This document shows, in pieces, positions 17,370-41,491 of a stretch of DNA of 46,412 bases; the stretch's first letter is position 1, and the number at the start of each line of letters is the position of its first letter. The stretch is from Kiritimatiellia bacterium. GTDB taxonomy: Bacteria; Verrucomicrobiota; Kiritimatiellia; RFP12; UBA1067. Location of the stretch: positions 1 through 46,412 of the forward strand of contig JAFRBA010000163.1 in the NCBI GenBank assembly GCA_017405115.1. The letters are read 5' to 3'. The notes under the pieces are model-generated. The model was not told where the DNA came from. It ran no database searches and saw only the letters and a list, made by a program, of their open reading frames with translations. Position numbers and translations under genes: made by a program.

Positions 17370-20300
17370 TCAGTCTACGGCACCGTGCGCCATGTTTAGC
17401 AGAAGTCGTCCGGCATACGGATCCTTCGCATACTTGCCTTCAAACACGCGGTAGGCATTCAGGACGATCCGCCCCTTCCCATAGCGCCAGACGCCAAGCG
17501 TCACGCCGAAATCAAAGCCGTGCATCTCGTCACCCCATGTGGCGGGCAATCCCGTGGCGAAAGACACAATCCGTCCGGGTTCCTTCGTTTCGTAGAGACA
17601 GCACGGATAGGACTGCGCAAAGTAGCGGTCGTCGCACACTCCAGCAGGCAACCCTGCCGTGAGCGCGTCGGGCCTGATCACGGCAAACGCACGGTAAGCC
17701 CAATTCACCAGCAACCGTACGGTGAGGTCTTCCGGCAGCTTCGGAAACCGCCGCTGCAGGGGAAAGCGGTTGACGCGGTCGATCGGCTTGCGCGGGGCGT
17801 CCGGACGCCACGTGAGCGTCTCGGGATCAAGAACCACGACGGTCGTTCCCGCTTCGGCGCGCACCGCGAGATTCGACCACGCCGCATCAGAAAGAACGGT
17901 GCGCCCGACGAGGATCCGCTTCGCCGACCCGGTCGCCGCCAGTTCCACGCCGTGCGTGGCGAGCCAGGCGTTCTCGGCATCTGTGAACCCGACCGTCTCC
18001 ACGCGCGTACCGGGCGCGGCATGTGCCGGCTCCGTCACCCGGAGCGTCAGCGTTCCACCCGTCGGAATCGCACCTTTCTCGCACTCCACGGAACATTCGT
18101 AGTCGCCCGGCTTCGCCACGAGGAAGCGCTCCTTGAACACAAGCTGTGCAAGCGGGAATCGCATCGGCGGCGCAACCGCCTGAACCGTCAGGTTCGTGCA
18201 GAAGTTCCACACGCATCCGTGTTCCTTCGAGACGACACGCGCCCGCACTGGATATCTGCCAGGCGCCAGAACGTCCTCGTTCGCCAGCACGACCTCCAAA
18301 GACGCTTCGCCGCCAGCCTCAATGCAGTCGTTCTCGAGGAACAGGCACCAATGCAGAGGCGCCATCTTCTCCTCGAGCACGTCATGCAGGTACGGATAGA
18401 AGTCCCGGTAGAAGTTCATCACCGACAGGCCGTTCGCCCAGCCTGACAGGGACGCCACCGAAAAACCGCACATCTGCGGGTTCGACCGCAGGCAGTCAAT
18501 CATCTTCCCCCGGGTTGCGGCGGCCTGCCGAAAAGTCTCGCGTGTGAACGTTTCCGTATTTGCGTACAGATCCGCCAAGCCAGTCGTCTGCCACAAATCG
18601 TCCAGCAGCGCCCCCATCTCGCGGTGCGCGTTCGCAGGCGTGTTGGACACGCCGCCGAACCCGTCCTGCTCAAACTGTCTGGCAAGAAGACCGCCGCGGC
18701 TCACTCCATTGACCCCGAATTCGCTCACGAAAAACGGCTTCGTGCCGCGTCCCGTCCGACGCAAGACGTACTGCGATGCCTCCTGAAGCGGCGTACGGAA
18801 GTACGCGTGCACGTCGCCTCGACGCGAATCCCACGCAACGATGACATCCCCGTACGGGCCTCTGTCCGGGCGTGCGGGAAACGGCGAATCGGGCGCGCCC
18901 CAGAAACGCTTCTCGAAGAACTGACGCTCCTCCTCGCCTCGATTCTCCTTCCACGGGACATTCTCGCCCTCCACACCCCAAAGGCACTCCCACTTGCGGC
19001 TGCCCGGATTGGACACGCTGCCAAGCGCCACGTCGCTGTCAAAACGGCCGCTTCCAATAAACACGAGGCGCGTGGGATCCTTGTCGCGCAGCGGCTGCAG
19101 CGCGTCGCGGCACCACTGATGCACCTCGTCGAGCAGAGTTTCGTTCTGCATCTCCCAGGCGACGACGGCCGGATGGTTGATTTTGTGCTCCACTTCCGCA
19201 AGCAAGTGTCGCCTGAAATCGTCCTTCAGGTTCGGCGAAACCGGCGTCGCGCGCCGCTCCAGCCACGATGCGCCATGCGAGCAGATCACGAGAAGCCCGA
19301 TTCGGTCGCAGAGATCCACCATCTCCGGCCAAGCCGTGGTGAAATGCAGTCGGATCGTGTTGAATCCGGCAGACTTCGCCTGCCAGATTTCCTTGCGGAC
19401 GAGTTCCGGACGTGTCACAGCCCCCATCGTTCCAATGCCTGCCACCATGCTCCCGCCCTTCACGAGCAACCGCTTTCCATTCAGCGTGAACCAACCGTCG
19501 GGAGACACGCGGAAATCGCGGAAACCAAACGTCACGTCCGTCCTCTGCAGTACGCCTGTGCCCGGCTCGGCCAGAAACGACAACGTGTAGAGGTTGGGCT
19601 CGTCCACGCTCCAGAGCCGATGTTGCAGAACGTCAAACGTCATAGACTCGTCCTTGTCGCCTGGCATCGCAGTGCAATCGAACGTGCGGGCGAAGACCGT
19701 CTCGCCCTTTGTATCTGTTACAGTCGCGACCATCCTGAGCGGCACGGGCGTGCCGCGGCCGTTGTGCAGCCGATAGGCCGCCGTCACGCGCCCCGTCTGC
19801 CAATCCGCCCGCACAACGGGTTTCTCCGCGCGCACGTCGCCGCGCAGGACGATCTCCACCGGATAGAACACGCCGCCTCCGCTCCAGGAAAACGTACCGA
19901 CCACGCCGTCGCCCATCGCCACCATGTCGCGGCGCGACACGCCGTCCACGCGGTTCGTTCCACCAGGCATCGCCAGCCGCAGCGCCACGGTGTTCCGGCC
20001 TTTCCTCAACGCCTTTGTGCATGGATATTCCTCGAAAAGGCCCCGCCCTTCGCAACGGCCAACCTTGACGCCGTTCACCCACCAGTCGGAGATATACGTG
20101 GCCAGCCCCGTCGAGAGCGCTGCCTCGCGGAAGGCATTCGTCTCCGGCAGTTCGAACGTCGTCCAGAACCACGTCACCTCGTCTCTCAACGCCGGGAACG
20201 TATCGCTTTGGAACCCGGGAATGCGGGCGACGACAGTTTCGGCGGGCGGCTGCGACGGCCAACCGTTCGCCACGCCGTCGTCTTTCGGATCCGTCGCCCC

Positions 20301-20396
20301 GATCCATGCCCCGTCCAGGCGGATCGTCCCGGCCCCAGCCCCGAACGCCATCGAGACCGCGATTGCCGTCGTCAGAAATCTGCTCAACCCGTGCAT
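17370..20396 (-). CDS. Secreted glycoside hydrolase family 2 enzyme, second copy
   Basis: 1008 aa. Signal peptide MHGLSRFLTTAIAVSMAFGAGAG. The domains are a jelly roll (about 25-185, DWWVNGVKVGRCEG), an immunoglobulin-like domain (about 190-295), a TIM barrel (about 300-650) and further C-terminal beta domains ending in a region with GxGRIVLNAYRVFEG. The acid/base is E419 in WEMQNE and the nucleophile E559 in PFFVSEFG. I start at 20396, with AAAGGATG nine bases upstream; an ATG at 20408 lies inside that ribosome site. It is only distantly similar to the other GH2 enzyme at 11026. It is the last gene of the regulator-permease-GH2 operon, so the permease probably imports its product. Confidence 0.83.
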   Translation of the reverse strand: MHGLSRFLTTAIAVSMAFGAGAGTIRLDGAWIGATDPKDDGVANGWPSQPPAETVVARIPGFQSDTFPALRDEVTWFWTTFELPETNAFREAALSTGLATYISDWWVNGVKVGRCEGRGLFEEYPCTKALRKGRNTVALRLAMPGGTNRVDGVSRRDMVAMGDGVVGTFSWSGGGVFYPVEIVLRGDVRAEKPVVRADWQTGRVTAAYRLHNGRGTPVPLRMVATVTDTKGETVFARTFDCTAMPGDKDESMTFDVLQHRLWSVDEPNLYTLSFLAEPGTGVLQRTDVTFGFRDFRVSPDGWFTLNGKRLLVKGGSMVAGIGTMGAVTRPELVRKEIWQAKSAGFNTIRLHFTTAWPEMVDLCDRIGLLVICSHGASWLERRATPVSPNLKDDFRRHLLAEVEHKINHPAVVAWEMQNETLLDEVHQWCRDALQPLRDKDPTRLVFIGSGRFDSDVALGSVSNPGSRKWECLWGVEGENVPWKENRGEEERQFFEKRFWGAPDSPFPARPDRGPYGDVIVAWDSRRGDVHAYFRTPLQEASQYVLRRTGRGTKPFFVSEFGVNGVSRGGLLARQFEQDGFGGVSNTPANAHREMGALLDDLWQTTGLADLYANTETFTRETFRQAAATRGKMIDCLRSNPQMCGFSVASLSGWANGLSVMNFYRDFYPYLHDVLEEKMAPLHWCLFLENDCIEAGGEASLEVVLANEDVLAPGRYPVRARVVSKEHGCVWNFCTNLTVQAVAPPMRFPLAQLVFKERFLVAKPGDYECSVECEKGAIPTGGTLTLRVTEPAHAAPGTRVETVGFTDAENAWLATHGVELAATGSAKRILVGRTVLSDAAWSNLAVRAEAGTTVVVLDPETLTWRPDAPRKPIDRVNRFPLQRRFPKLPEDLTVRLLVNWAYRAFAVIRPDALTAGLPAGVCDDRYFAQSYPCCLYETKEPGRIVSFATGLPATWGDEMHGFDFGVTLGVWRYGKGRIVLNAYRVFEGKYAKDPYAGRLLLNMAHGAVD

Positions 20397-20427
20397 GCTC
20401 TTTGTCATCCTTTCCCCAGAATCGCAC

Positions 20428-21687
20428 TCACTCTTTTTCATGCGAGAAGAAAATCGCATAGACAAGCAAATATGCCGCGCCTAAAGCCGGTATCGCGTAT
20501 GAAACCGCATATCCGAGGTGATCCGCAAGCAAGCCCTGCGCAAGCGGCAACAGTCCGCCGCCGACAAGAACCGTCATTACGAGGCCTGAGGCGGCCTCGG
20601 TGTATTCGCCCAACCCCTCGACGGTCAGATTGTAGGCCGCCGCCCACGAGACGGATGCGAACAGTCCGACAAAGGTAAGCAGACAGCATCCGAGCGGCAC
20701 ATGGACAATCTCAAAGCCCGGGCATGTAAAAACGGCCATCGGCACAACCAATCCCATTGCAACGACGCCAACGGCAGTAAAGAGCAGCGCCGCCGCTCCG
20801 CAGAAGGCGAGAATCGCACGGCTGGAGAACTTGCCGCCAATCCACGATCCGGCAAAGCGTCCGACAAGCATCAAGAAAAAGAACATGCCCGTGACGCTCC
20901 CTGCGACCGCCGGCGTCGTCGCTTTGAACGATCCGCGAGGATCGAGCATCCACAGGTTGAGAATCCCAGGGACGCCGATTTCGATGCCGATGTAAAAGAA
21001 GACGCCGACAATGCCCATTGCCGCATGACGAAAGCGAAGTGGCGAAAGAACACCCACCCGCGCGGCAGACTGTTCACGCTCCTCCGCCGGCTCGGGCAAA
21101 TGGAATGTAAGCAACGCAAAGAACGCCGCGGCAAAAATGCCCAGCACCCACCAAAGGAGAACTTCGACATCCCGCAGGGACGTCTTCGCCGAGATGGTGC
21201 CGATCAATAGCATCACGACGATTGGGGCAAGCGTCGAGACGATGGAATTGACGCCGCCGCCAAAGCAAATGAGCTGATTGCCTTTCCTTCCACCTCCGCC
21301 AAGCGTGTTGAGCATCGGATTGATGACGATGTTCAGCATGCAGCATGAAAAGCCGCACACGAACGTACCAAACAGATAGATGGCAAAACTCGGCAAAACG
21401 GAGAGTCCCAGCCGGCTGGACGCGATTTGCACGATTGTCCCGACCACGCCGACCACAAGGGCCGCAAGCGCCGTTTTCTTGTAGCCGATTGTCGAAAGGA
21501 GCCGTCCCGAAGGAATGCCCATGAAGAGATAGGCTGCAAAGGTCATCAGGTTCCCGGCCATTCCAAGGAGGTTGGAGCCGTCAATGCCCGGCTGGACCTT
21601 CCACACGGCGCCGATAGGCGCGGACAGGTGCGTGACTAGTGCCAAAAGCCCATAAAGGACGAACATCGCAATTGCTGCAGGGCTCAT
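20428..21687 (-). CDS. MFS sugar permease, FHS/FucP-like
   Basis: 419 aa, about twelve transmembrane segments with the usual central loop (PEPAEEREQSAARVG, about 197-212). The GNLMTFAAYLFMGIPSGRLL and YKKTALAALVVGVVGT segments follow the layout of the FHS family of fucose/glucose/galactose proton symporters. The start overlaps the regulator stop by ATGA (21684-21687). It lies between a transcription factor and a GH2 glycosidase, so its substrate is probably the monosaccharide released by that enzyme. The family is confident; the sugar is not. Confidence 0.8.
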   Translation of the reverse strand: MSPAAIAMFVLYGLLALVTHLSAPIGAVWKVQPGIDGSNLLGMAGNLMTFAAYLFMGIPSGRLLSTIGYKKTALAALVVGVVGTIVQIASSRLGLSVLPSFAIYLFGTFVCGFSCCMLNIVINPMLNTLGGGGRKGNQLICFGGGVNSIVSTLAPIVVMLLIGTISAKTSLRDVEVLLWWVLGIFAAAFFALLTFHLPEPAEEREQSAARVGVLSPLRFRHAAMGIVGVFFYIGIEIGVPGILNLWMLDPRGSFKATTPAVAGSVTGMFFFLMLVGRFAGSWIGGKFSSRAILAFCGAAALLFTAVGVVAMGLVVPMAVFTCPGFEIVHVPLGCCLLTFVGLFASVSWAAAYNLTVEGLGEYTEAASGLVMTVLVGGGLLPLAQGLLADHLGYAVSYAIPALGAAYLLVYAIFFSHEKE

Positions 21688-22889: not shown

Positions 22890-24029
22890 TCACAGACACG
22901 GCGAACGATGCCCTTGTCCGGCCTTGAACACGACTACCCGCCCGTCTGCACCATCAGCAGCGACAGAGAAATCTGACGCCGCCGCCGGCACGAAAAACTG
23001 GTCGCCGGGGCGTAGCGGAGCCGCTCCCGCCGCGCACTCTAGCCTGGCGTGCCCGGAAAGGACGTAAAGCACCGAAAACCGCCCATCGGCCGCGATGCGG
23101 CAAGAACCGGAGATGTCAATACGCTCCAGCGAAAAGCAATCCGTTCGCGGCATCCCCACGATTACGGTGCGGACGAATTCCTTCGTCCGTTCCACAGTCT
23201 GCGGAGCGACCATGTAGCGCCGCCGCGCCGCCGCCTCGTCGCATCCATCGTAATGGAAGCACTTGAACATGTTGTCGAATCCGATTCCGTAGTGGCAGGC
23301 CTTCTCCGGAATCGTGAATCCCTGCGGCGTCACCTTCTCGGTGCGGAAGGTATAGTCCGTGGGTTCCTGTATCTCCACGAGCAGGCATCCCGCCCCGATC
23401 GCATGAGGCATGCCGCCCTCTATGAAGAAAGTGTCGCCCGACTTCACCTCGATGCGATGGAGCATGCCTAGCATGGCCGGTATGTCCTGTCGGTCGAAAA
23501 CGTTGCGCCACGCCGCCTCCGTGACGCCGGGCTTGAAGCCCATGTAGACGCACGAGGGCTCGACGGCGGGGGCGCCGTCGCTACGCAGCCCTTTGACGAC
23601 AGGGGGACGGACGCCGACGATGTGCCAGCACTCTGTCTTGCCGAAAGGCGAGTTGAAGAACTCGTGCGCCTTCTCGCGGTCAGGATGGCACTGAACGCCG
23701 AGCCGCTCCGCCGCATCTATGAGCTTCACGAGGACGCCGGGCGACTCGCCCCATCGCGCAACATGATCCGCGCCAAGCGCGGCAACGGGATCAGCCGAGA
23801 TGCAGTCCTTGAGCGTCATGCCGGAATCCGCAAGGCGGCTCAAGCCCTCGACGACGTCCTCCCGCCCCGGGTTGATCGCCCGGACAGTGGAGCATATCCA
23901 GTCCTCGGGAAAATGAGAATCATGTGCGGAAAAATCTCCGTGCATGGCGTCGATGAGCCGTCCGCCGTGGTACGTTCGCCACGCACGTTCGCTTTTGAGG
24001 CGGATCGGGCTGTCGAATGCGACGTTCAT
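22890..24029 (-). CDS. Mannose-6-phosphate isomerase, type I (ManA-like)
   Basis: 379 aa cytoplasmic cupin enzyme that interconverts mannose 6-phosphate and fructose 6-phosphate in the canonical family. The zinc ligands are visible: Gln and His in LGVQCHPDREKAHEFF, Glu in GKTECWHIVG and His in GGMPHAIGAGCLL. The start region SPIRLKSERAWRTYHGG and the C-terminal cupin half (PLRPGDQFFVPA) fit the family. The ATG at 24029 overlaps the stop of the glycyl radical enzyme gene by ATGA; a longer frame running upstream is an artefact. It is the last gene of the symporter/glycyl radical operon. A related sugar phosphate is possible. Confidence 0.8.
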   Translation of the reverse strand: MNVAFDSPIRLKSERAWRTYHGGRLIDAMHGDFSAHDSHFPEDWICSTVRAINPGREDVVEGLSRLADSGMTLKDCISADPVAALGADHVARWGESPGVLVKLIDAAERLGVQCHPDREKAHEFFNSPFGKTECWHIVGVRPPVVKGLRSDGAPAVEPSCVYMGFKPGVTEAAWRNVFDRQDIPAMLGMLHRIEVKSGDTFFIEGGMPHAIGAGCLLVEIQEPTDYTFRTEKVTPQGFTIPEKACHYGIGFDNMFKCFHYDGCDEAAARRRYMVAPQTVERTKEFVRTVIVGMPRTDCFSLERIDISGSCRIAADGRFSVLYVLSGHARLECAAGAAPLRPGDQFFVPAAASDFSVAADGADGRVVVFKAGQGHRSPCL

Positions 24030-26245
24030 GAGACCGCCTCGGGGTTTACGGATTTTACGCGGTCTACGACGAGCTTGCGGAACTTCGGCGAGAGCATCGC
24101 GAAGAACGCCGTGAAGCCCGTGACGCGCACTACGAGGTCCGGGAATTTCAGAGGATCCTTGTCGGCTTCTAGGATACGCTTCGCGTCGATGATGTTGATG
24201 TTGAGAAGCGTGTTGCCGCTCTTCATTATTCCGCGCACCATCGCGCACATCTTGTCTATCCCCTCCTCGTCGTTGGCGATCATCGGATCTACCTCGAGCT
24301 GCACGGGCGCCGTGTTGCCGTAGCCGGGCTGCACGGCCGCGATGGAGTTGCACATCGCCGTCACCGCGCCGTCGGCGCGGAAGCCGCCGTTCGGGTTCGC
24401 CCCGTGGTTTATCGGCTCGCCCGCCCTGCGTCCGTTGGGCGTCGCCTTGAGAAGAGAGCCGAGCAGGATGGTGTTCGACCAGGAAAATAGCCCGGGTATG
24501 AAATTCACGTTCCTCGGATCATCGGAGTGCTGCCTCACAAGGTCACGCACGAGTTCCGTCCAGAGCTTCGATATCCTTACCGCCCACTTGTCGCCGAGCG
24601 TGTCGCCGCCGCCGTAGCGCTCCGAATGCAGCATCATCTGCCGCACGCGCTCGCCATCCGTCCCCGCATAGTCGGCGTCCATGTGGCGCTTCAGATCGTC
24701 GTATGAAATCCTCTTTTCCACGTCGCAGCGCTGTTCGAGCGCGGCAAAGCTGTCCGCCGCGACCGCGATCCCCGCGCCGTCGATGCAGATGTTGTAGTAG
24801 TTCGCACCACCGTCGGTGATGTTCACGCCTTTCTTGACGAGGCCGTGCTGCATGAGGTTCAGTATCAGCTCGGGCTGGCTCTTCGTCTGGTAGTCAAGGT
24901 GGTGCATAACGCCGCGCCCGGTCGCATCGACGGCGATCTTGAGATGCTTCTCGTAGAGCCGCCACAATGCCTCCGCAGACCTCTCGCCGTCGCCTGCCAC
25001 CATCTCGTTCCACGCGACCTCGAACATCATTGCAAGGTTGACCTTGATGGTGTCGTTCATCGTGTACTCCATACCGGGAATGCACATCCAGTGGCAGCCC
25101 GCAGCGACGCGGCGGCGCGCGAGTTCTTTCTGGTATCCGCAACGCATGAAGCCGTCCATCAGAGCCTTGTCGCTCGAGTACCGAGGCCAGCCCTGCTTGT
25201 TCTTGAACAGGAGCTCGACCGACTTGCGGAAGAACTTGGGGTCGATCTTGTCGTGGAATCGGATCGTGAGGTTAGTCGCGATGTTGAGCTTGTCTGCCGC
25301 TTCAAGGGCAAGATACGAAAGGTGGCACGTGCGGTCGGCGTCGTTCTCGTCCGGGCCCGAGAGCTGCCAATAGCGGCTGTCCTGCAGGAAGAGGCACGCG
25401 AGGTAGAAGACCGCCTCGTCGTCCGTCAGACTTCCAGCGGCGACGTCGCGCTCGTAGAACGGATTGAAGAGGTCCTCCAGCTGCCCGCCCGCACTGCCGC
25501 GGTTGTACGTGCGCGAGACCATAGAGAACCAGCAGCTCCACTGCACCGCCTCGCGGAATGTGCGCGGCGGTTCGGACGCGACCCTAAGATCGATCTTCCC
25601 CATCGTCCGCAGGTTCTCGGCGAGCTGTGCGTTCCGTTCCTCCTTCGCAAGCGCAAGGATCTCCTCGCCTGCGCGATGGATGAACGCGATGATGTGCTCG
25701 ACGACGGCGATCTCGGCGTCGTAGAACTCGTGGTGCGACTCGTCGTGCTTGCCGCGCTCATCCTTGAGTTCGGCGAGGATTCCGCCCCAGCCCTTCTCGA
25801 AGCCGATCTGGAGGTCTGGCGTGAAGTGGTGGCAGTTGTCTATTCCGGATATGACCTGGTAGCGGTCGAATATGGCCTGAAGGTCGGGATAGGCGTAGTC
25901 GGGGTTCCACTTCGTTCCAGCTGGACGCAGCCTCTCGAGGAAGAAGAATCCCTTTGCCGCGAACGCATCGAGCGCATCGACGTAGATAGGGTGCTGCTCG
26001 AGTATCGCGCAGTAGTTCTCGCTCCACGCCTTGTATCCGTAGATGGAACCGTTCGGATGACTGGGCTTCAGCTTGTAGTGGAATTCGTCCTGTTCGATGA
26101 GGCCGTAGTCGTCCTCGTCGGCCCCGCCGGCCTTTGCCTTCTCTGCTGTCTGCTCGACCTTGCGCGCGCGGAGAAGCGCGATGCGCTCATCGTACGTGAA
26201 GCGCCGATCCGCCGGAAACTCGTTTATGAAATGTATCTTGCTCAT
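24026..26245 (-). CDS. Glycyl radical enzyme of unknown substrate (pyruvate formate-lyase superfamily)
   Basis: 739 aa. The C-terminal glycyl loop VVRVTGFTAFFAMLSPKFRK places the radical on G710, with FPDL just before it as usual. The barrel is complete (for example TFREAVQWSCWFSM near 229, NITDGGANYYNICIDGAGI near 475, SGNTLLNINIID near 676). The active-site loop reads AAGCHWMCIPGMEYTMND (381-398): C384 should form the thiyl radical, but the residue two after it is W386 rather than the Glu of the GC-x-E dehydratases, and it does not have the Cys-Cys pair of pyruvate formate-lyase. A second cysteine, C388, follows. This argues against glycerol or propanediol dehydratase, choline lyase and PFL. 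It lies two bases after its activase. Substrate unknown; the context suggests a sugar or sugar acid. Confidence 0.85.
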   Translation of the reverse strand: MSKIHFINEFPADRRFTYDERIALLRARKVEQTAEKAKAGGADEDDYGLIEQDEFHYKLKPSHPNGSIYGYKAWSENYCAILEQHPIYVDALDAFAAKGFFFLERLRPAGTKWNPDYAYPDLQAIFDRYQVISGIDNCHHFTPDLQIGFEKGWGGILAELKDERGKHDESHHEFYDAEIAVVEHIIAFIHRAGEEILALAKEERNAQLAENLRTMGKIDLRVASEPPRTFREAVQWSCWFSMVSRTYNRGSAGGQLEDLFNPFYERDVAAGSLTDDEAVFYLACLFLQDSRYWQLSGPDENDADRTCHLSYLALEAADKLNIATNLTIRFHDKIDPKFFRKSVELLFKNKQGWPRYSSDKALMDGFMRCGYQKELARRRVAAGCHWMCIPGMEYTMNDTIKVNLAMMFEVAWNEMVAGDGERSAEALWRLYEKHLKIAVDATGRGVMHHLDYQTKSQPELILNLMQHGLVKKGVNITDGGANYYNICIDGAGIAVAADSFAALEQRCDVEKRISYDDLKRHMDADYAGTDGERVRQMMLHSERYGGGDTLGDKWAVRISKLWTELVRDLVRQHSDDPRNVNFIPGLFSWSNTILLGSLLKATPNGRRAGEPINHGANPNGGFRADGAVTAMCNSIAAVQPGYGNTAPVQLEVDPMIANDEEGIDKMCAMVRGIMKSGNTLLNINIIDAKRILEADKDPLKFPDLVVRVTGFTAFFAMLSPKFRKLVVDRVKSVNPEAVS

Positions 26246-26246
26246 G

Positions 26247-27062
26247 TCAGCAAACCTTCACTTCAAGGCCCTTTATGTCTGCTAGGGCGGCGCGGAACTT
26301 GGCGAGTTCCTCGGCGGAATAGGGCTTTGCGTCCGCAAACGCATTCGCAACCCCAAGCGCCTCGCGCTTCGCTCCGCCGAGCGGATTGAAGTTCAGAACC
26401 TCATAGCGCACGATGTTGTCCATCTTCGCGATGTACTCTGCTATCGCATGCAGGTTCTCGACGGTGTCGGTCACGCCCGGGACGAGCGGCGTTCGCACGA
26501 CCATCGGTATGCCTAGCTTCGAGGCGCGGCCGATGGAGTTGAATATCGTCGGGTTGTCAACCCCGGTCTGCTCCTTGTGTGGAATCGTCAGGTTGAGCTT
26601 AAGGTCGCACATTATGAAGTCCATGCGCTCGAGGACGGGGTGGATCGTCTGCCACGGCAGCGACATGTTCGTCTCAACCGCTATCTTGACGTCCTCGGCA
26701 TGGCAGGCGTCGGCAAGGGCTGCAACGAACTCTGGGTGGAGCATCGGCTCGCCGCCCGAGACTGTCGCGCCGCCGCCAGACTCTGCATAGTACACCTTGT
26801 CCTGTACGACCTCGCGCATCACCTCCTCGACCGTCATCTCGCGCGACGACATGACGCGCGCGCCAGACGTGCAACCCTCGACGCACTTACCGCAACCGAT
26901 GCACTTCTCCTTGTAGAAGAGCTCCACCGGTTTCATCGGGATCGTCTCGGGGTTGTGGCACCACGGGCAGCGCATGTTGCAGCCCTGCAGGAAGACGGTC
27001 GTGCGGATGCCCGGGCCGTCTGTCAGAGAAAACCGCTGTATGTCGGTGACAAAAGCCTTCAT
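26247..27062 (-). CDS. Glycyl radical enzyme activating protein (radical SAM)
   Basis: 271 aa. The radical SAM cluster is bound by C28, C32 and C35 (GCNMRCPWCHNP). A ferredoxin-like insertion follows at C54, C57, C60 and C64 (CIGCGKCVEGC), giving one extra 4Fe-4S cluster rather than the two found in many activases. SGGEPMLHPEF (about 101-111) is the SAM-binding GGE motif. It uses S-adenosylmethionine to abstract hydrogen from G710 of the adjacent enzyme. It overlaps the cupin gene by ATGA and the glycyl radical gene follows after one base, so the three are made together. Confidence 0.92.
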   Translation of the reverse strand: MKAFVTDIQRFSLTDGPGIRTTVFLQGCNMRCPWCHNPETIPMKPVELFYKEKCIGCGKCVEGCTSGARVMSSREMTVEEVMREVVQDKVYYAESGGGATVSGGEPMLHPEFVAALADACHAEDVKIAVETNMSLPWQTIHPVLERMDFIMCDLKLNLTIPHKEQTGVDNPTIFNSIGRASKLGIPMVVRTPLVPGVTDTVENLHAIAEYIAKMDNIVRYEVLNFNPLGGAKREALGVANAFADAKPYSAEELAKFRAALADIKGLEVKVC

Positions 27063-27838
27063 GTGCGCCTCCCCTTCTCATCAAACGACGACTGCTTTCC
27101 CGTCGGCACGTGCGACCAGTCGAGGCGCTTGAGGGCGAGGTCGTTGTCGGGGTAGAAGTCGATCCAGAGGTAGTGGCAGTGCTGCCCGGCGCGCACATCG
27201 ACGCCGTGTATCGAGCCAAGCGGTATGTACAAGAGCTCGTTGCCCTTCATCGGGACCTCCTCGTAGTCTATGAGGACGTCCATCTCGTTCTCCTCGAAGC
27301 TGAAGAAGAACTGATCGAGCATCGGGTGGTCATGGCTCTTCACCGCGTCGATGCCGTACGCCTCGACGGATCCGAGTGCAAAACGCGGTATGCGGCGCTG
27401 GTCGATGCAGCTCCTCGAGATCGTCTTGTCGCTCTTGTTGCGGTCGCGGTACTGCTTCGAGTTGCGATATACCTGGATGAGCGGGAACTGCGTGTGGTAC
27501 TCGGCCGCGAGATTGTCGTCCTCCCCCTCGCGCTTGAACCAGCGTATCTCCAAAATCTGCACGTCTGTGAGCGCGTCAATCAAGACGGGCTGCGCCGGCG
27601 ACGGCACGAACACGACCCGTTCGTGGAATGTGTACTCGTTGCCGTCCGTCGAGAACTTCACATCGCCCTTAAGCACCACGAGCACATGATGCCCGCCAAA
27701 CGGCTCCAAGACAAGAGACGCCCCGGCGAGCACGGTGTGGTGGTACGGCTCCGCGCCCGGTATGCATCCGTCGAGGATTTTCCTGGACGAGTTTTCTCGC
27801 GTGTCGAAGTCGAACTTTACCTTCTGTATCTCCGGCAT
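27059..27838 (-). CDS. Two-domain cupin protein of the glycyl radical locus
   Basis: 259 aa with two cupin folds. The first (about 30-105) contains LEPFGGHHVLVVLKGDV and FVPSPAQPVLI. The second (about 160-245) contains HDHPMLDQFFFSFE and LYIPLGSIHGVDV, where His, His, Gln/Glu and His could bind a metal. No signal peptide and no DNA-binding domain are visible, so it is a cytoplasmic enzyme or sensor. Bicupins of this shape include sugar-acid isomerases, but I do not recognise the exact family. It lies between the symporter gene and the activase and overlaps the latter by ATGA, which ties it to the same pathway. Confidence 0.7.
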   Translation of the reverse strand: MPEIQKVKFDFDTRENSSRKILDGCIPGAEPYHHTVLAGASLVLEPFGGHHVLVVLKGDVKFSTDGNEYTFHERVVFVPSPAQPVLIDALTDVQILEIRWFKREGEDDNLAAEYHTQFPLIQVYRNSKQYRDRNKSDKTISRSCIDQRRIPRFALGSVEAYGIDAVKSHDHPMLDQFFFSFEENEMDVLIDYEEVPMKGNELLYIPLGSIHGVDVRAGQHCHYLWIDFYPDNDLALKRLDWSHVPTGKQSSFDEKGRRT

Positions 27839-27840
27839 GG

Positions 27841-29553
27841 CTACACCTTTGCATTAAGCTTCTTGCGTACAATCGGAACAAGAAACGACACGGCTACGGC
27901 TGCAGTGACGGTCAACGCAGAAGCTCGTACGAAGTCGCCGTACACCCAGCAACCAACGCCGAACATGAGCGAATATACTGCCAGTGCACCAAGCGAAACG
28001 CATACGAGTCCCCAGCCAATCTCACGGCGGCTTGTGCGCACCCTGGACTTGAACTCCGCAAGGCGTGCGGCCTCGGTCGTCGGCGTCACGAGCGTCACTG
28101 CCACCCAGGCGACCGTCGTTATCGCCATAACCACGACGAGCCTCTGCCAAGCAAGCATCTCCGGATGCGCGACCTGGAGGTAAACGGCAACGATGAACGA
28201 AACTGTCATCGCGGTTATCTCGCTCCAGGCGTTGATCCTCATCCAAAACCACCGGAGCAGGAAGATGAGGCCCGTACCAGCACCGATCTGAAGAATCAGG
28301 TTGAAGAACGCCCCCACCGAGGCGAGGATGTCGGTGAGGAAGGCGGATGCGAGCATCAGCACCACGACCGACAGCCGGCCGACCACGATCAGCTCGCGCT
28401 CGCCCGCGTCCTTGCGCATGAAGCGCTTCCACACGTCGTTGGCGATGTAGTTGGAGCCCATGGAGAGGTGCGCCGCCACCGTGGAGAACAGCGCGCCGAG
28501 CATCGAGGCCACGACGAGGCCGAGCCATCCGTTCGGGATGAACGTGAAGAGGGCCGGGTAGGCGAGGTCGCCCTTCACCATGTTCTCGGGGATGTGGGGG
28601 AACATGGCCTTGAGCGAGTCGAGATCCGGGAAGATGACAAGCGTCGCAAACGCGGCGAGGTACCACGGCCACGGGCGCACCACGTAGTTCATCACAAGGA
28701 AGAGTATCGTCCCCGCCTGGCAGTGGTTCTCGCTCTTCGCTGAAAGCATGCGGTGGACGATGTACCCGCCGCCGCCGGGTTCGCTGCCAGGATACCACAC
28801 GTTCCACCACTGGATTGCGACCGGTATCACGAACACCGCGACGAGCGTGTCCGTATCGCCGAAGTTCGGAAAGAAGTCGAGGTGGCTCTGCACAACAGGG
28901 TTGGACATCATCTTCGAGAACCCACCCACGGAGGGATGCGACCAGCCGAAGTACATGATCACAAACGCGCCCGCGAGGATTATGAGGAAGAGGAAGAAAT
29001 CCGTGATGATCGCGCCGCGGAACCCACCGAGCGCGGAGTACACGATCGACGCGATGCAACACGTCCAGATGACAGTCCATTGATCGACGTTGAAGAGAAC
29101 CTGCCCCATCTTGACGGCGGGGAGTATGCACCACGCCGTCGTGATTGCGTTGAACACAAGCCCCAGGTATATCGCCCTGAATCCGCGGAGGAACGCGGCG
29201 GGGCTGCCCGAATAGCGAAGCTCGTAGAACTCAATGTCGCTCCTCGCGCCGGAACGCACCCACAACTTCGAGTAGATGAACACGGTCGTCATGCCCGTCA
29301 GGAGAAATGCCCACCACTTCCACATGCGGGACATTCCCCCTTCGCGCACGAACTCCGTGAACATCGACGCGGAGTTGGAGCTCGTGGCGGCGGCAGCCAT
29401 CGAGAAGCCGATGAGCCACCACGGCATCGACCTCCCGGAAAGGAAGAAGTCCTTGGAGTCACGCCCGGCCCTGCGCGAGCAAAGCGCCGCTATTCCGAAC
29501 ATGAGCGCGAAGAAAAGCGTCACGACGAGATAATCTGTTCCATTCAAAAGCAT
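27841..29553 (-). CDS. Sodium/solute symporter (SSS family)
   Basis: 570 aa, about 13-14 transmembrane helices. The segments GTDYLVVTLFFALMFGIAAL, KDFFLSGRSMPWWLIGFSM and AAATSSNSASMFTEF are the typical SSS beginning (sodium-site helices), and LGLVVASMLGALFSTVAAHL with SNYIANDVWKRFM is the conserved helix 8 region. It imports an organic solute, probably the substrate of the pathway behind it. I start at the ATG at 29553: TGGTACAAT ends six bases before it, predicting a leaderless transcript, and an upstream in-frame ATG at 29619 would lie beyond the promoter. First gene of the operon to 22890. Confidence 0.87.
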   Translation of the reverse strand: MLLNGTDYLVVTLFFALMFGIAALCSRRAGRDSKDFFLSGRSMPWWLIGFSMAAAATSSNSASMFTEFVREGGMSRMWKWWAFLLTGMTTVFIYSKLWVRSGARSDIEFYELRYSGSPAAFLRGFRAIYLGLVFNAITTAWCILPAVKMGQVLFNVDQWTVIWTCCIASIVYSALGGFRGAIITDFFLFLIILAGAFVIMYFGWSHPSVGGFSKMMSNPVVQSHLDFFPNFGDTDTLVAVFVIPVAIQWWNVWYPGSEPGGGGYIVHRMLSAKSENHCQAGTILFLVMNYVVRPWPWYLAAFATLVIFPDLDSLKAMFPHIPENMVKGDLAYPALFTFIPNGWLGLVVASMLGALFSTVAAHLSMGSNYIANDVWKRFMRKDAGERELIVVGRLSVVVLMLASAFLTDILASVGAFFNLILQIGAGTGLIFLLRWFWMRINAWSEITAMTVSFIVAVYLQVAHPEMLAWQRLVVVMAITTVAWVAVTLVTPTTEAARLAEFKSRVRTSRREIGWGLVCVSLGALAVYSLMFGVGCWVYGDFVRASALTVTAAVAVSFLVPIVRKKLNAKV

Positions 29554-29559
29554 GACGGT

Positions 29560-29568
29560 ATTGTACCA
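29560..29568 (-). promoter_or_regulatory. Extended -10 promoter (TGGTACAAT) of the glycyl radical operon
   Basis: Minus strand TGG (29568-29566) then TACAAT (29565-29560). Six bases remain before the ATG at 29553, so the mRNA is predicted to start at or beside the start codon. Confidence 0.65.
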
Positions 29569-29587
29569 TACGAAGGCGGCGAACGGA

Positions 29588-29620
29588 ATTGCGTCGCCGT
29601 CAAGTGTACTTGACCGCAAT
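29588..29620. promoter_or_regulatory. Palindromic operator between divergent promoters of the AraC regulator and symporter
   Basis: GTCAAGTGTACTTGAC (29599-29614) has perfect seven-base arms, GTCAAGT and ACTTGAC. An outer pair ATTGCG (29588-29593) and CGCAAT (29615-29620) extends it. It lies 26 bp from the plus-strand -10 box and 33 bp from the minus-strand -10 box (measured from the core), so one bound regulator could act on both. The AraC-type protein next door is the candidate ligand. Confidence 0.6.
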
Positions 29621-29637
29621 CAAGCCGACGGACAATT

Positions 29638-29646
29638 TGGTATAAT
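29638..29646 (+). promoter_or_regulatory. Extended -10 promoter (TGGTATAAT) of the AraC-type regulator
   Basis: TGG (29638-29640) followed by a perfect TATAAT (29641-29646). The ATG begins at 29653, six bases later, predicting a leaderless mRNA. Confidence 0.75.
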
Positions 29647-29652
29647 TCGCAC

Positions 29653-30537
29653 ATGGCAAGACACGAATACGGACATCGCCCCCCGGACATCGGCGCGAAC
29701 GCCCTTGGAATGGGGTGGGTGCGCGGCATCCGCCACCTGGCGTCGCGATCGGCGAAATGCTCGTTCTGGCATCGACACGGTGAGACGTCCATCATATGCT
29801 GCCTTCGAGGCGAATACGTCTATGAACTGCACGGACTACCGGCAATCACGCTCACCGCTGGTTCGTTCCTTGTCGTTCCGGCGCAGGTGGAGCATCGTCA
29901 CCTGAAGGCCGTCGACCCCGTGGGCGACAGGCTTGAGATACTTCTGGATCCTACTCCGTCCAAAGCGCCGCCTCGCTCCCCGTTGGACTGCGACTCATGC
30001 AGAAAGCTGCACTCCGCGATCTTGAGGCTCGCACTCGCGCCGACAAAGTGCGGTAACGACCTGCTGCGCGGCTGCCGCGAACTCTACGACCTCGCTGGGC
30101 GCGCCCCGCGCTCCATTTCTCCCGAGGAACTGGGATACGCACGGAGCCTTTGTCACTGCATACTCTACAAGATGGCCAATCCAGACCGAAAGCCTGCCAT
30201 GCGGCACATCGACGTCACTTTCGAGGAGATTGCGCAGTGGGTCGAAAGGCATCTGGGCGAGAAAATCGACATCGACCGACTGGTGGCCCACATCGGATAC
30301 TCCCGCACGCAGGTATTCACGATATTCAAGGATAACACAGGTCTCTCCCCTGCGGACTTCCTCACGCGCCTGAGGGTGAAAAAAGCGTGTTCCCTTCTCG
30401 AGACCTCCTCCCTGCCCGCCTGCCACATTGCGTCGGCATGCGGTTTTTCCAGCGCCTCTCTGTTCAACGCAGTATTCAGGCGGCAAACAGGGACGTCGCC
30501 GATTTCATGGCGCGAAAGAAATTCCGCTGCGCGATGA
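29653..30537 (+). CDS. AraC-family regulator with cupin sensor
   Basis: 294 aa. The N-terminal part is a cupin sensor (CSFWHRHGETSIICCLRGEY, LTAGSFLVVPAQVEHRH). The C-terminal hundred residues carry two helix-turn-helix motifs (IDIDRLVAHIGYSRTQVFTI and CHIASACGFSSASLFNAVFR) ending TGTSPISWRER, the AraC signature. It is divergent from the symporter/glycyl radical operon with a palindrome between them, so it probably controls that operon and itself in response to the substrate. The start is set by the -10 box six bases upstream. No ribosome site can exist on such a transcript. Confidence 0.87.
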   Translation: MARHEYGHRPPDIGANALGMGWVRGIRHLASRSAKCSFWHRHGETSIICCLRGEYVYELHGLPAITLTAGSFLVVPAQVEHRHLKAVDPVGDRLEILLDPTPSKAPPRSPLDCDSCRKLHSAILRLALAPTKCGNDLLRGCRELYDLAGRAPRSISPEELGYARSLCHCILYKMANPDRKPAMRHIDVTFEEIAQWVERHLGEKIDIDRLVAHIGYSRTQVFTIFKDNTGLSPADFLTRLRVKKACSLLETSSLPACHIASACGFSSASLFNAVFRRQTGTSPISWRERNSAAR

Positions 30538-30639: not shown

Positions 30640-32352
30640 TTACACTTGCTTGACGACGGCAAGCGTCTGCCCTTTGGAGACAGCCGCGCCATGCGCGACT
30701 AGGAACTCGATCTTGCCGGCCTCGGGCGCCGCTATCGGGTTGAAGAGCTTCATCGCCTCCACGACGCACACGGCCTGCCCGGCCTTCACCTCGGCGCCAT
30801 CGGCAGCCATATGCGGCTTGCCGGGGGCGTCGCTCCTGTAGAACGTGCCGTTGAGCGGAGCCGGTATCGGCGTGCCGGAAACGGCAATGCCTGGCTGTGC
30901 GGCGGGCGCGGCACCCTGCGGCTTTCCACCTTCAACTTTACACTTTCCACTTTCAACTTTACACTCCGCCCTCTCCTCCTCGTCGGCGGGGATTGGGCCG
31001 CCCTCGTTCCGCCACTTGAAGTAGCCGAGCGCGACCTCGGGGAAGAGCGCGTACGAGAGTATGTCCTCCTCCGCCCTTATGGTGTTCGGGGGCAGTTCGT
31101 CCGCCGCGGCGACGAGGCCGGGCTTCAGGAGGTCGGCGGGACGGCACTCGATTGGCTTGAGCTTGCCGACGAGCTTGCGGCGCAGCTTCGGGTCGATCGG
31201 CGCGGGCGTCTTGCCGTAGTACCCCGCGGCATAGCGGCGGGTCTCGTCCGTCACCATCGAGTAGCGCGAGCCCGACAGCACGTTCAGCACCGACTGCACG
31301 CCCACGATCTGCGACGTCGGCGTAACGAGCGGCGGGTATCCGAGGTCCGCACGGGCCTTCGGGAGCTCCGCCAGGACCTCCGGAAGGCGGTCCAGCGCAT
31401 CCTGCTGAGCCAGCTGGCTGCGGAGGTTGGAAATCATGCCGCCCGGGATCGCGTGCACGAGGACGCCTGCGTCCACCGCCTCCACCTTGGCGGACGACGC
31501 GGGCTGGCGCGTCGCCTTGAGCTTGCGGAAGTAGTCGTTGATCTTCGTCAGCGAGGCCGTGTCGAGCCCCGTGTCAAAGCCCTCGGACTCCAGGATCGCC
31601 TTCATGCTCTCCGTCGGAGGCTGCGACGAGAAGGAGCTCATGGTCGAAATCGCGCAGTCCACGCATCCCGCGCCGGCCTCCACCGCGGCGAGGTACATGG
31701 CCGCGGCCATGCCGCTAGTCATGTGGGAGTGCACCTGGATCGGCATGTCGGGCAACGCCTTGCGGAGCGCCGCGACGAGTTCGCGGGCCGCGCCGGGCGT
31801 GAGGATGCCGGCCATGTCCTTGATTGCGAGCGAGTCGACCCCCATCGCCGCCTGGCGCTTGGCGAGACGGACGTAGGCGGCGACCGTGTGCACGGGCGAG
31901 GTCGTGTAGCAGATCGTCCCCTGCGCGTGGCCGCCGTACTTCTTCACGGCGCGGATCGCCGTCTCTAGGTTGCGGGGGTCGTTCAGCGCGTCGAAGACCC
32001 GGAAGATGTCCATGCCGTTCTCGCACGCGAGGGCGACGAACCTGTCGACGATGTCGTCGGGATAGTGCCTGTAGCCGAGGAGGTTCTGCCCCCTGAGCAA
32101 CATCTGAAGCGGCGTCTTCCTGCAGACCTTCTTTATCTGGCGCAGGCGCTCCCACGGGTTCTCCCGGAGGAACCGCATGCAGACGTCGAAAGTCGCTCCG
32201 CCCCAGCACTCGAGCGAATAGTAGCCGGCTCCGTCAATCGTCTCGGCGATGGCGAGTATGTCGTCCGTGCGCATTCTCGTGGCCCACAGGGACTGGTGGG
32301 CGTCGCGCAGAGTCGTGTCGGTGATGCGGATTCGCGTTGTCTTCTTCTTCAT
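30640..32352 (-). CDS. Biotin-dependent carboxyltransferase (oxaloacetate decarboxylase alpha / pyruvate carboxylase B type)
   Basis: 570 aa. The carboxyltransferase barrel opens with ITDTTLRDAHQSLWATRMRT and carries CWGGATFD, RGQNLLGYRHYPDD, the lysine in LAIKDMAGIL that becomes carbamylated, and the metal histidines in VHSHMTSGMA. The C-terminal biotinyl domain has VVEAMKLFNPI, with biotinyl-lysine near 534. It moves carboxyl groups between oxaloacetate/pyruvate and biotin. No partner (biotin carboxylase or membrane beta/gamma subunits) lies in the window, so decarboxylase and carboxylase roles cannot be told apart. The linker (about 463-477) contains a duplicated seven-residue unit. Leaderless start is predicted at 32352. 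Confidence 0.88.
   Translation of the reverse strand: MKKKTTRIRITDTTLRDAHQSLWATRMRTDDILAIAETIDGAGYYSLECWGGATFDVCMRFLRENPWERLRQIKKVCRKTPLQMLLRGQNLLGYRHYPDDIVDRFVALACENGMDIFRVFDALNDPRNLETAIRAVKKYGGHAQGTICYTTSPVHTVAAYVRLAKRQAAMGVDSLAIKDMAGILTPGAARELVAALRKALPDMPIQVHSHMTSGMAAAMYLAAVEAGAGCVDCAISTMSSFSSQPPTESMKAILESEGFDTGLDTASLTKINDYFRKLKATRQPASSAKVEAVDAGVLVHAIPGGMISNLRSQLAQQDALDRLPEVLAELPKARADLGYPPLVTPTSQIVGVQSVLNVLSGSRYSMVTDETRRYAAGYYGKTPAPIDPKLRRKLVGKLKPIECRPADLLKPGLVAAADELPPNTIRAEEDILSYALFPEVALGYFKWRNEGGPIPADEEERAECKVESGKCKVEGGKPQGAAPAAQPGIAVSGTPIPAPLNGTFYRSDAPGKPHMAADGAEVKAGQAVCVVEAMKLFNPIAAPEAGKIEFLVAHGAAVSKGQTLAVVKQV
30922..30963 (-). repeat. In-frame 21-bp tandem repeat in the carboxyltransferase linker
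   Basis: Two 21-bp units (30922-30942 and 30943-30963) match at 20 of 21 positions and encode CKVESGK and CKVEGGK in the linker before the biotinyl domain. The unit length preserves frame. Similar GTTGAAAGTGGAAAGTGTAAA-type repeats are a common kind of mobile micro-repeat in gut bacteria. Confidence 0.8.
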
Positions 32353-40548: not shown

Positions 40549-40560
40549 TTTCAGTTCCCG

Positions 40561-40615
40561 GTTTAGAGTTTCCAGTTTAAACTAACGACTAACGACTAAC
40601 AACTAACAACTAACG
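40561..40615. repeat. Heptameric tandem micro-repeat tract in the spacer before the oxidoreductase gene
   Basis: Three 7-bp units GTTTAGA, GTTTCCA, GTTTAAA (40561-40581, overlapping the next unit by one base) are followed by five ACTAACG/ACTAACA units (40581-40615). The tract fills the 71-bp spacer between two genes of one operon. The GTTTAGA units recur at 41448-41475. Confidence 0.85.
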
Positions 40616-41435: not shown

Positions 41436-41447
41436 TTTTAGTCTCCT

Positions 41448-41475
41448 GTTTAGGGTTTGGAGTTTAGAGTTTTTG
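41448..41475. repeat. Heptameric GTTTRGA micro-repeat tract between isomerase genes
   Basis: Units GTTTAGG, GTTTGGA, GTTTAGA and GTTTTTG follow one another at 7-bp spacing, just upstream of the ribosome site of the gene at 41435. The GTTTAGA unit also occurs at 40561. Confidence 0.8.
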
Positions 41476-41491
41476 CGGAGGCCCATAAGGT

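What the first reader, a model, noticed from the sequence alone, without database searches (positions are those of the whole stretch)
22890..30537. Glycyl radical enzyme locus with an atypical active-site loop and no microcompartment
Seen: AraC regulator, sodium/solute symporter, bicupin, one-extra-cluster activase, glycyl radical enzyme and ManA in tight overlapping order. The enzyme has G710 in RVTGF, but its thiyl loop is GCHWMCIPGMEY (C384, H385, W386, C388). Established: B12-independent dehydratases and choline lyase use GC-x-E and often sit in bacterial microcompartments; pyruvate formate-lyase has a Cys-Cys pair. Inference: this is a separate subfamily acting on an imported solute whose product feeds into sugar phosphate metabolism through the isomerase. 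It is the strongest candidate here for an undescribed pathway.
Basis: partly seen in the sequence, partly recalled or inferred. Interest (0 to 1): 0.8.

Follow-up and report, generated by a model that had tools for sequence, protein, structure and literature searches.

The report
New glycyl radical enzyme sugar cassette
Anaerobic bacteria of several phyla, many from herbivore guts, carry a conserved gene cassette built around an uncharacterised glycyl radical enzyme whose usual active-site glutamate is replaced by tryptophan, probably for breaking down a sugar or sugar-like compound by a route not yet described.

Summary
The glycyl radical enzyme (GRE, 24026-26245, minus strand) has G710 in RVTGF and C384 in GCHWMCIPGMEY, with activase, SGLT-like symporter, bicupin, ManA-like and divergent AraC genes around it. 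It reaches no curated cut-off of a named GRE and is 25% or less identical to PflD, YbiW and PflB. In a tree of 80 GREs it lies in its own clade (30 GCHW rows, support 100) inside a GC-x-W clade (46 rows, support 98) where Trp stands at the CXE glutamate. The cassette recurs in Kiritimatiellae, Spirochaetes and Clostridia: 32 of 37 loci have the bicupin, 26 of 37 the ManA-like gene; 10 of the 16 misses are contig ends. Relatives add Gfo/Idh/MocA oxidoreductases and xylose-isomerase-like TIM barrels: both within 8 kb in 3 of 4 family-I loci, 0 of 20 other GRE places of the same genomes; in the window itself the nearest pair is 13 kb off. The symporter is not conserved across phyla. Best reading: a radical C-O lyase for a sugar-type substrate, perhaps first oxidised to a keto sugar. 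Substrate and chemistry are inferred. New variant of a known kind.

The parts
24026..26245 (-). Glycyl radical enzyme, 739 aa, family I of the GC-x-W clade; C384 in GCHWMCIPGMEY, G710 in RVTGF; H140, R245 and D398 invariant in the clade
   Evidence: ORF; PF02901 4.3e-84 and PF01228 1e-11; below the cut-offs of all named GREs; alignments; tree
26247..27062 (-). Radical SAM GRE-activating enzyme, 271 aa, one auxiliary 4-Cys cluster motif
   Evidence: TIGR02494 270.8 bits over cut-off 174.35; Cys count
27059..27838 (-). Bicupin, 259 aa; H169-x-H171, Q176 and H211 of the second cupin invariant, likely metal ligands; probable metalloenzyme (isomerase?)
   Evidence: Cupin_2 below cut-off; conservation in 27 rows; AlphaFold2 model pLDDT 93.4; nearest folds DUF861/YlbA, quercetinase, IolB-like, KduI
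22890..24029 (-). Phosphomannose-isomerase-like protein (class I), Q115, H117, E135, H211 and R231 invariant (numbering of the first row of A4)
   Evidence: start placed at ATG 24029
27841..29619 (-). SSF (SGLT-type) sodium/solute symporter; likely start near 29553 (MLLNG...)
   Evidence: PF00474; nearest solved relatives are sodium/glucose cotransporters; homologues beside some family I and family II GREs
29653..30537 (+). AraC-type regulator, divergent from the cassette
   Evidence: HTH_18; homologues in L002 and L020
21684..22886 (-). GntR-type HTH with periplasmic-binding-type sensor domain, next gene downstream on the same strand; membership in the cassette not shown
   Evidence: not next to the cassette in L002 or L020
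39157..41486 (-). Gfo/Idh/MocA oxidoreductase (39157-40581) followed by xylose-isomerase-like TIM barrel (40620-41486); about 13 kb from the GRE, possible but unproven partners
   Evidence: PF01408 1.4e-18 and PF01261 1.5e-11

Best explanation
The locus is an anaerobic catabolic cassette for a sugar or sugar-like compound (sugar, polyol, cyclitol or sugar acid). SHOWN by sequence: the central enzyme is a GRE with its own activase, in a clade where the CXE glutamate is tryptophan; activase, GRE, bicupin and ManA-like genes stay together in MAGs of three phyla, in two arrangements; Gfo/Idh/MocA oxidoreductases and TIM-barrel isomerase-like proteins are usual neighbours of relatives. INFERRED: the solute is imported (SSF here, other carriers elsewhere). 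A Gfo/Idh/MocA enzyme, or an FAD oxidoreductase in some relatives, oxidises a hydroxyl to a ketone, and the TIM barrel epimerises or eliminates next to it. The activase makes the glycyl radical at G710, which makes a thiyl radical at C384; this abstracts H from a carbinol carbon, and a neighbouring C-O bond (hydroxyl or ring oxygen) is expelled, with H140 and D398 on the acid side and R245 perhaps holding a carbonyl or acid group. If the substrate radical sits next to a ketone its OH is already acidic, so the CXE glutamate base is not needed and a Trp can line the pocket. The bicupin and ManA-like proteins would then isomerise the product toward an aldolase substrate.
For: Clade and motif. H140 (GDH H164 position) in 46 of 46 GC-x-W and 25 of 28 other non-PFL rows, 0 of 6 PFL rows; D398 (GDH D447 position) in 46 of 46, 7 of 28 and 0 of 6; no Cys pair. 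Nearest solved sequence is PflD, which a review says acts on 1,5-anhydromannitol-6-phosphate (PMC12441222, passage; PDB title). Cassette conservation. Oxidoreductase plus TIM barrel. L002 runs SSF-bicupin-activase-GRE-ManA-Gfo/Idh/MocA-3-keto-disaccharide hydrolase. Sister-family loci hold sugar-type carriers, alpha-mannosidases and a DHDPS-family aldolase. Precedent for 3-keto sugar chemistry by such genes: levoglucosan pathway, PMC7676230 (passages).
Confidence: 0.42

Rival explanations
1. C-C bond lyase: the GRE, lacking the CXE glutamate, works more like pyruvate formate-lyase or a decarboxylase, cutting a keto sugar or sugar acid into smaller pieces.
For: The eliminase glutamate is replaced in all 46 GC-x-W rows of the tree; an Arg at 245 is invariant there, 1 of 28 in other non-PFL rows, and could hold an acid or keto group; the neighbours probably make keto compounds; the tree groups the clade on the side of PFL, though weakly (85); fold Z ties with decarboxylases and MasD.
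Confidence: 0.2
2. A cyclitol (inositol-type) pathway: Gfo/Idh/MocA as inositol dehydrogenase, TIM barrel as inosose isomerase or dehydratase, bicupin as IolB-like isomerase, GRE as the ring-opening or dehydrating step.
For: Inositol 2-dehydrogenase TIGR04380 is among the best models of the Gfo/Idh/MocA proteins; the bicupin fold is close to an IolB-like protein and KduI; SGLT-type symporters include inositol carriers (recalled).
Against: All those model scores are far under the curated cut-offs; the KduI/IolB Pfam family (PF04962, recalled) was not among the bicupin's matches; alpha-mannosidase, rhamnosidase, fucosidase and GH2 genes near some relatives point to glycosides.
Confidence: 0.13
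3. A sulfonated or other acidic sugar substrate (sulfoquinovose, uronate, aldonate), with the GRE cleaving C-S or dehydrating a sugar acid.
For: TRAP transporter genes beside the cassette in Spirochaetes (L003 by NCBIfam; L005, L030, L036 by clustering) and in a Clostridia locus (L028), AEC carriers (L031; L016, L033 by clustering) and TctA (L027); a DHDPS-family aldolase beside a family II GRE; rumen Sphaerochaetaceae and Oscillospiraceae degrade sulfoquinovose (PMC13219744, passages).
Against: No transketolase or transaldolase family was met in the neighbours scanned; that paper assigns SQ use to the sulfo-transketolase pathway with other genes; SGLT-type and MFS sugar carriers in other loci.
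Confidence: 0.15
4. A glycyl radical sugar-phosphate enzyme like YbiW or PflD, simply a diverged member of that pathway.
For: Best solved match is PflD (2.3e-48).
Against: Identity 25% and 20%; CXE glutamate absent; no PTS or transaldolase-like aldolase domain among the neighbours scanned, unlike the E. coli loci; the tree places PflD and YbiW elsewhere.
Confidence: 0.06

Closest known systems
GRE eliminases with the CXE motif (glycerol/propanediol dehydratase, choline TMA-lyase CutC, HypD, HplG, IslA)
   Same: Fold, Gly loop, catalytic Cys, activase type; His at 140 in most; Asp at 398 in some (glycerol dehydratase, PflD)
   Different: Glu of CXE is Trp, Arg at 245; about 20% identity in the structural alignments; partners are sugar-type genes and no microcompartment
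PflD and YbiW (1,5-anhydromannitol-/anhydroglucitol-6-phosphate enzymes; Ma et al. 2024 as cited in PMC12441222, itself not seen)
   Same: PflD is the nearest solved relative by sequence; sugar-type substrate likely in both
   Different: CVE/CIE loop there; PTS and/or fructose-6-phosphate aldolase genes near them in E. coli, none met here; 25% and 20% identity
Pyruvate formate-lyase
   Same: GRE fold and radical site
   Different: C418-C419 pair there, G383-C384 here; 19% identity
Levoglucosan pathway (LgdA, LgdB1, LgdB2, LgdC; PMC7676230, passages)
   Same: A 3-dehydrogenase and a Gfo/Idh/MocA oxidoreductase together with two proteins annotated as sugar isomerases; 3-keto sugar chemistry
   Different: The four genes described include no GRE, bicupin or ManA-like gene
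Class I mannose-6-phosphate isomerase (ManA, B. subtilis 1qwr)
   Same: Metal ligands and cupin C-terminal domain
   Different: Below the TIGR00218 cut-off; substrate unknown

Membership tests
Glycyl radical enzyme superfamily | C-terminal glycyl radical loop RVxG(F/Y) | tested here: met
   RVTGF, G710; PF01228 over cut-off; invariant in 27 of 27 rows of A1
Glycyl radical enzyme superfamily | Catalytic Cys loop and GRE barrel fold | tested here: met
Glycyl radical enzyme superfamily | Adjacent radical SAM activase | tested here: met
   TIGR02494 over cut-off
Glycyl radical enzyme superfamily | Glycyl radical formed on activation (EPR) | not testable with these tools
   none
CXE eliminases | Glu two residues after the catalytic Cys (CXE, PMC7077986, passage) | tested here: not met
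   Trp386; Trp in 46 of 46 GC-x-W rows, Glu in 27 and Asp in 1 of the 28 other non-PFL rows
CXE eliminases | His at the GDH H164 and Asp at the GDH D447 position (shared by some members, not strictly defining) | tested here: met
   H140 and D398; but D398 in only 7 of 28 other non-PFL rows
Named GRE equivalogs (CutC, HypD, HpsG, HpfG, IAD, HPAD, PRK09983, PFL1) | Curated NCBIfam score | tested here: not met
   189.2 bits or less against cut-offs of 994.2 or more
Pyruvate formate-lyase | Adjacent Cys-Cys pair | tested here: not met
   G383-C384 against C418-C419 of PflB
GRE-associated microcompartment loci | BMC shell genes beside the GRE | tested here: not met
   0 of 5 relatives' genomes have PF00936 on the family-I contig; 2 of 5 have it on other contigs. 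Window: 18 proteins scanned, none
Class I mannose-6-phosphate isomerase | TIGR00218 cut-off | tested here: not met
   Window 86 bits (scanned as the over-long ORF) and L010 101 bits against 116.2
Class I mannose-6-phosphate isomerase | Metal ligands Gln-His-Glu-His | tested here: met
   Q115, H117, E135, H211 invariant in 19 rows, region aligned to 1qwr
KduI/IolB bicupin isomerases | Family HMM match | tested here: not met
   Only Cupin_2 below its cut-off and no NCBIfam match at 0.001
KduI/IolB bicupin isomerases | Fold | tested here: inconclusive

The most novel reading that the evidence does not exclude
The GC-x-W clade is a GRE class that works on keto sugars: a Gfo/Idh/MocA oxidoreductase first installs a ketone, which acidifies the radical-bearing hydroxyl so that the CXE glutamate is no longer needed, and the GRE then expels water or opens the ring. 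This would be an unrecognised anaerobic, microcompartment-free sugar pathway shared by Kiritimatiellae, Spirochaetes and Clostridia, many of herbivore guts.
Probability: 0.25. Interest if true: 0.8.

Novelty: new variant of a known kind. Interest (0 to 1): 0.6.

Why it matters
GREs carry out important anaerobic reactions of gut communities, and newly solved subfamilies have opened pathways (choline, hydroxyproline, isethionate, anhydrosugars). Here a clade with its own active-site signature and a reproducible set of partner genes is laid out, with a concrete prediction about why the signature changed. If true it adds a sugar route in mostly uncultured rumen and hindgut bacteria, and a test case for what the CXE glutamate is for.

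Tried and rejected
PFL-like chemistry through C384/C388: rejected, C388 is Ser or Ala in 16 of 46 GC-x-W rows. YbiW/PflD pathway membership: rejected on the CXE test. Naming the bicupin from fold search: led nowhere, many bicupins tie. Pocket inspection in the GRE model: not possible, active-site loops under pLDDT 50 and no coordinates given. Sulfoquinovose pathway: considered, no transketolase or transaldolase met among neighbours scanned. The first neighbour count used profiles trained on the family's own neighbours: of 27 family-I loci of 11 kb or more, 25 with Gfo/Idh/MocA, 20 with TIM, 8 with the FAD oxidoreductase, 26 with bicupin and 21 with ManA-like; of 16 control GRE loci of that length, 4, 0, 1, 0 and 0. 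It is biased towards family I and missed two Pfam-positive TIM genes in L010, so the Pfam-based count is the one to trust. The GCHW constancy in L001-L037 is partly circular, because one of the two scan patterns was AAGCHWM. In one search at most 3 candidates a genome were scored, so its counts are lower bounds. L022 and L023 look like one contig under two taxon names (same gene lengths), a likely binning error, so phylum labels of single MAGs are unsafe. The tree is the quick method; long branches outside the GC-x-W clade are unsure. No kinase domain was met by Pfam, but not all neighbours were scanned: an unscanned ORF of L076 (12709-13908, about 8 kb from a family II GRE) carries what I recall as a galactokinase signature. 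Literature: listings of searches of an open-licence library showed no description of this subfamily (in one search only 40 of 414 titles and abstract starts were shown); passages only were read of PMC12441222, PMC11528403, PMC7077986, PMC7670169, PMC7676230 and PMC13219744. Subscription papers, among them Ma et al. 2024, are not held, so absence there says little.

Full report
What is in the window. The minus strand carries, in order of transcription, an SSF symporter (27841-29619), a bicupin (27059-27838), a radical SAM activase (26247-27062), a GRE (24026-26245) and a ManA-like protein (22890-24029), with a divergent AraC gene at 29653-30537. Neighbours overlap by 4 bases or are 1-2 bases apart, so one transcript is likely. 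Pfam and NCBIfam confirm the classes. The GRE passes PF02901 and PF01228 but reaches none of the curated cut-offs of named GREs (best equivalog PRK09983, 189 bits against 1109; subfamily TIGR01774 231.5 against 678.2). The nearest solved sequence is PflD (2.3e-48).

Active site. The loop is GCHWMCIPGMEY with C384, and the glycine loop RVTGF with G710. Aligned with glycerol dehydratase, PflD, YbiW and PflB, W386 stands where eliminases have the Glu of CXE; the HypD paper (PMC7077986, passages) says that CXE is conserved among GRE eliminases and that this Glu is proposed, for most of them, to deprotonate a substrate hydroxyl. G383 stands where PFL has C418, so there is no Cys pair. Column counts over the 80 tree rows: H140 (GDH H164 position) is His in 46 of 46 GC-x-W rows, 25 of 28 other non-PFL rows and 0 of 6 PFL rows; D398 (GDH D447 position) is Asp in 46, 7 and 0; R245 is Arg in 46, 1 and 0. 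The roles of the GDH residues are recalled. C388 is Cys in 30, Ser in 15 and Ala in 1 of the 46. So Trp386 and Arg245 mark the clade, while H140 and D398 are shared with part of the eliminases and do not by themselves prove elimination.

A clade of its own. A protein search gave 635 relatives, of which the 120 listed are 79-93% identical; 27 rows (26 of the 120 plus the window) all carry GCHWM. A genome scan gave 37 loci labelled Kiritimatiellae or Verrucomicrobia, Spirochaetes, Clostridia or unclassified, 35 of them with a readable GCHW loop and two cut off or broken there; one scan pattern contained the loop, so this is partly circular. Whole-genome profile searches, which do not depend on the loop, found sister families: GCNWM(S/C) with a readable loop in 13 genomes, GCQWSA in 1 and GCQWYC in 2, among 288 genomes of the class that holds L002, besides 3 with family I (lower bounds). 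In the taxonomic family of L005 8 of 139 genomes match at family I or II scores (loops not all read). The tree of 80 rows puts family I at support 100 and the whole GC-x-W clade, 46 rows, at 98. Outside it 27 rows have Glu, 1 Asp, and 6 PFL rows Ser at that position. The window sequence groups with L001, L002 and L020, and these with Sphaerochaeta-type ones (8 rows, support 100), which suggests transfer between phyla. The tree holds E. coli PflD, YbiW and PflB but not CutC, HypD, IslA or X-succinate synthases.

The cassette. Of the 37 loci, 32 hold the bicupin and 26 the ManA-like gene. Four of the five without bicupin run into a contig end; L035, whose GRE is broken, lacks it. Of the 11 without a ManA-like gene six run into a contig end (L003, L015, L022, L023, L030, L036), L017, L021 and L035 have room, and L018 and L027 are unclear. 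Outside the window's group the order is activase-GRE-bicupin-ManA; in L002, L020 and the window it is symporter-bicupin-activase-GRE-ManA. The window's activase has one auxiliary cluster motif where most relatives have two.

Gfo/Idh/MocA oxidoreductases and xylose-isomerase-like TIM barrels flank most relatives, sometimes fused in one protein (L007), and some loci have a FAD oxidoreductase. The TIM barrel tested resembles ketose 3-epimerases and a 3-keto-glucoside 4-epimerase; the oxidoreductase tested resembles, among many, DgpA, a glucuronide 3-dehydrogenase and inositol dehydrogenases, and all NCBIfam scores are below curated cut-offs. In L002 the operon continues into a Gfo/Idh/MocA gene and a 3-keto-disaccharide hydrolase; in L020 into Gfo/Idh/MocA and a TIM barrel; in L007 into a class II aldolase. 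As a control I took 20 other GRE places in four of the same genomes, leaving out one family II place: by Pfam places, both partner types lie within 8 kb in 3 of 4 family-I loci and 0 of 20 controls (Fisher 0.002); Gfo/Idh/MocA alone 4 of 4 against 4 of 20; TIM alone 3 of 4 against 2 of 20; the family II place has Gfo/Idh/MocA only. Several control contigs are short, which favours the contrast. In the window the nearest such pair is about 13 kb away, so for this genome the link is not operonic.

Transport. The window symporter is nearest to sodium/glucose cotransporters, and 54-56% identical symporters sit beside family II GREs of four genomes. Elsewhere TRAP, auxin-efflux-type, TctA, MFS or ABC carriers occur, so the substrate may be anionic. 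Family II loci add alpha-mannosidases with an ABC sugar-type carrier (L120) and a DHDPS-family aldolase (L118).

Other parts. The bicupin model is good (pLDDT 93.4) and shows two cupins; H169, H171, Q176 and H211 are invariant and likely metal ligands. Its nearest folds are DUF861/YlbA-type proteins, quercetinase, an IolB-like protein and KduI, without a clear winner. The ManA-like protein keeps the ligands of class I phosphomannose isomerase but scores below that family's cut-off.

Microcompartments. PF00936 genes are absent from three of five relatives' genomes and in two lie on other contigs than the family-I GRE, among them the contigs of two CXE GREs (G003:C30, G005:C8), a built-in positive control.

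Judgement. The separate subfamily and conserved cassette are shown. A sugar-type substrate is likely. C-O elimination is the best single guess for the chemistry: PFL features are absent and the nearest solved enzyme acts on an anhydrosugar phosphate; the retained His and Asp fit but are not proof. Keto-sugar priming is a hypothesis that joins the loss of the Glu to the oxidoreductase partners; nothing here proves it.

Noticed in passing
L077 2770-5241 and 9727-12000, L078 30-1667 (G004:C37, genome of L020): One contig holds at least four GRE-like places within about 18 kb, interleaved with large proteins and one activase-like gene; two begin with twin-arginine-like export signals (TRRKFLGG, TTRKRFLGG) and one with a hydrophobic signal-like start (motifs judged by eye), which would be odd for oxygen-sensitive cytoplasmic enzymes.
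   Followed up: no
G003 (genome of L010): One Clostridia genome carries about 13 GRE genes of several loop types (GCHW, GCNW, GCVE, GCYE, GCTE, CCVS and others).
   Followed up: partly
L118 280-1473 and 12935-14164: Two uroporphyrinogen-decarboxylase-family proteins, a family that includes corrinoid methyltransferases (recalled), lie around a family II GRE with a FAD oxidoreductase and a DHDPS-type aldolase.
   Followed up: no
L079 and L080: GCQWYC-type GREs sit with a sugar-porter-type MFS gene, a TIM barrel and a fatty-acid-desaturase-like gene (Pfam on L079; L080 by similarity).
   Followed up: partly
window 11026-13941, 17370-20465, 33848-36253, 30640-32352: Two GH2-type proteins, a GH123-type protein and a biotin-dependent carboxylase/decarboxylase subunit around the cassette.
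   Followed up: no
L022, L023: Same gene lengths under Clostridiaceae and Kiritimatiellae labels, probably one contig binned twice.
   Followed up: no
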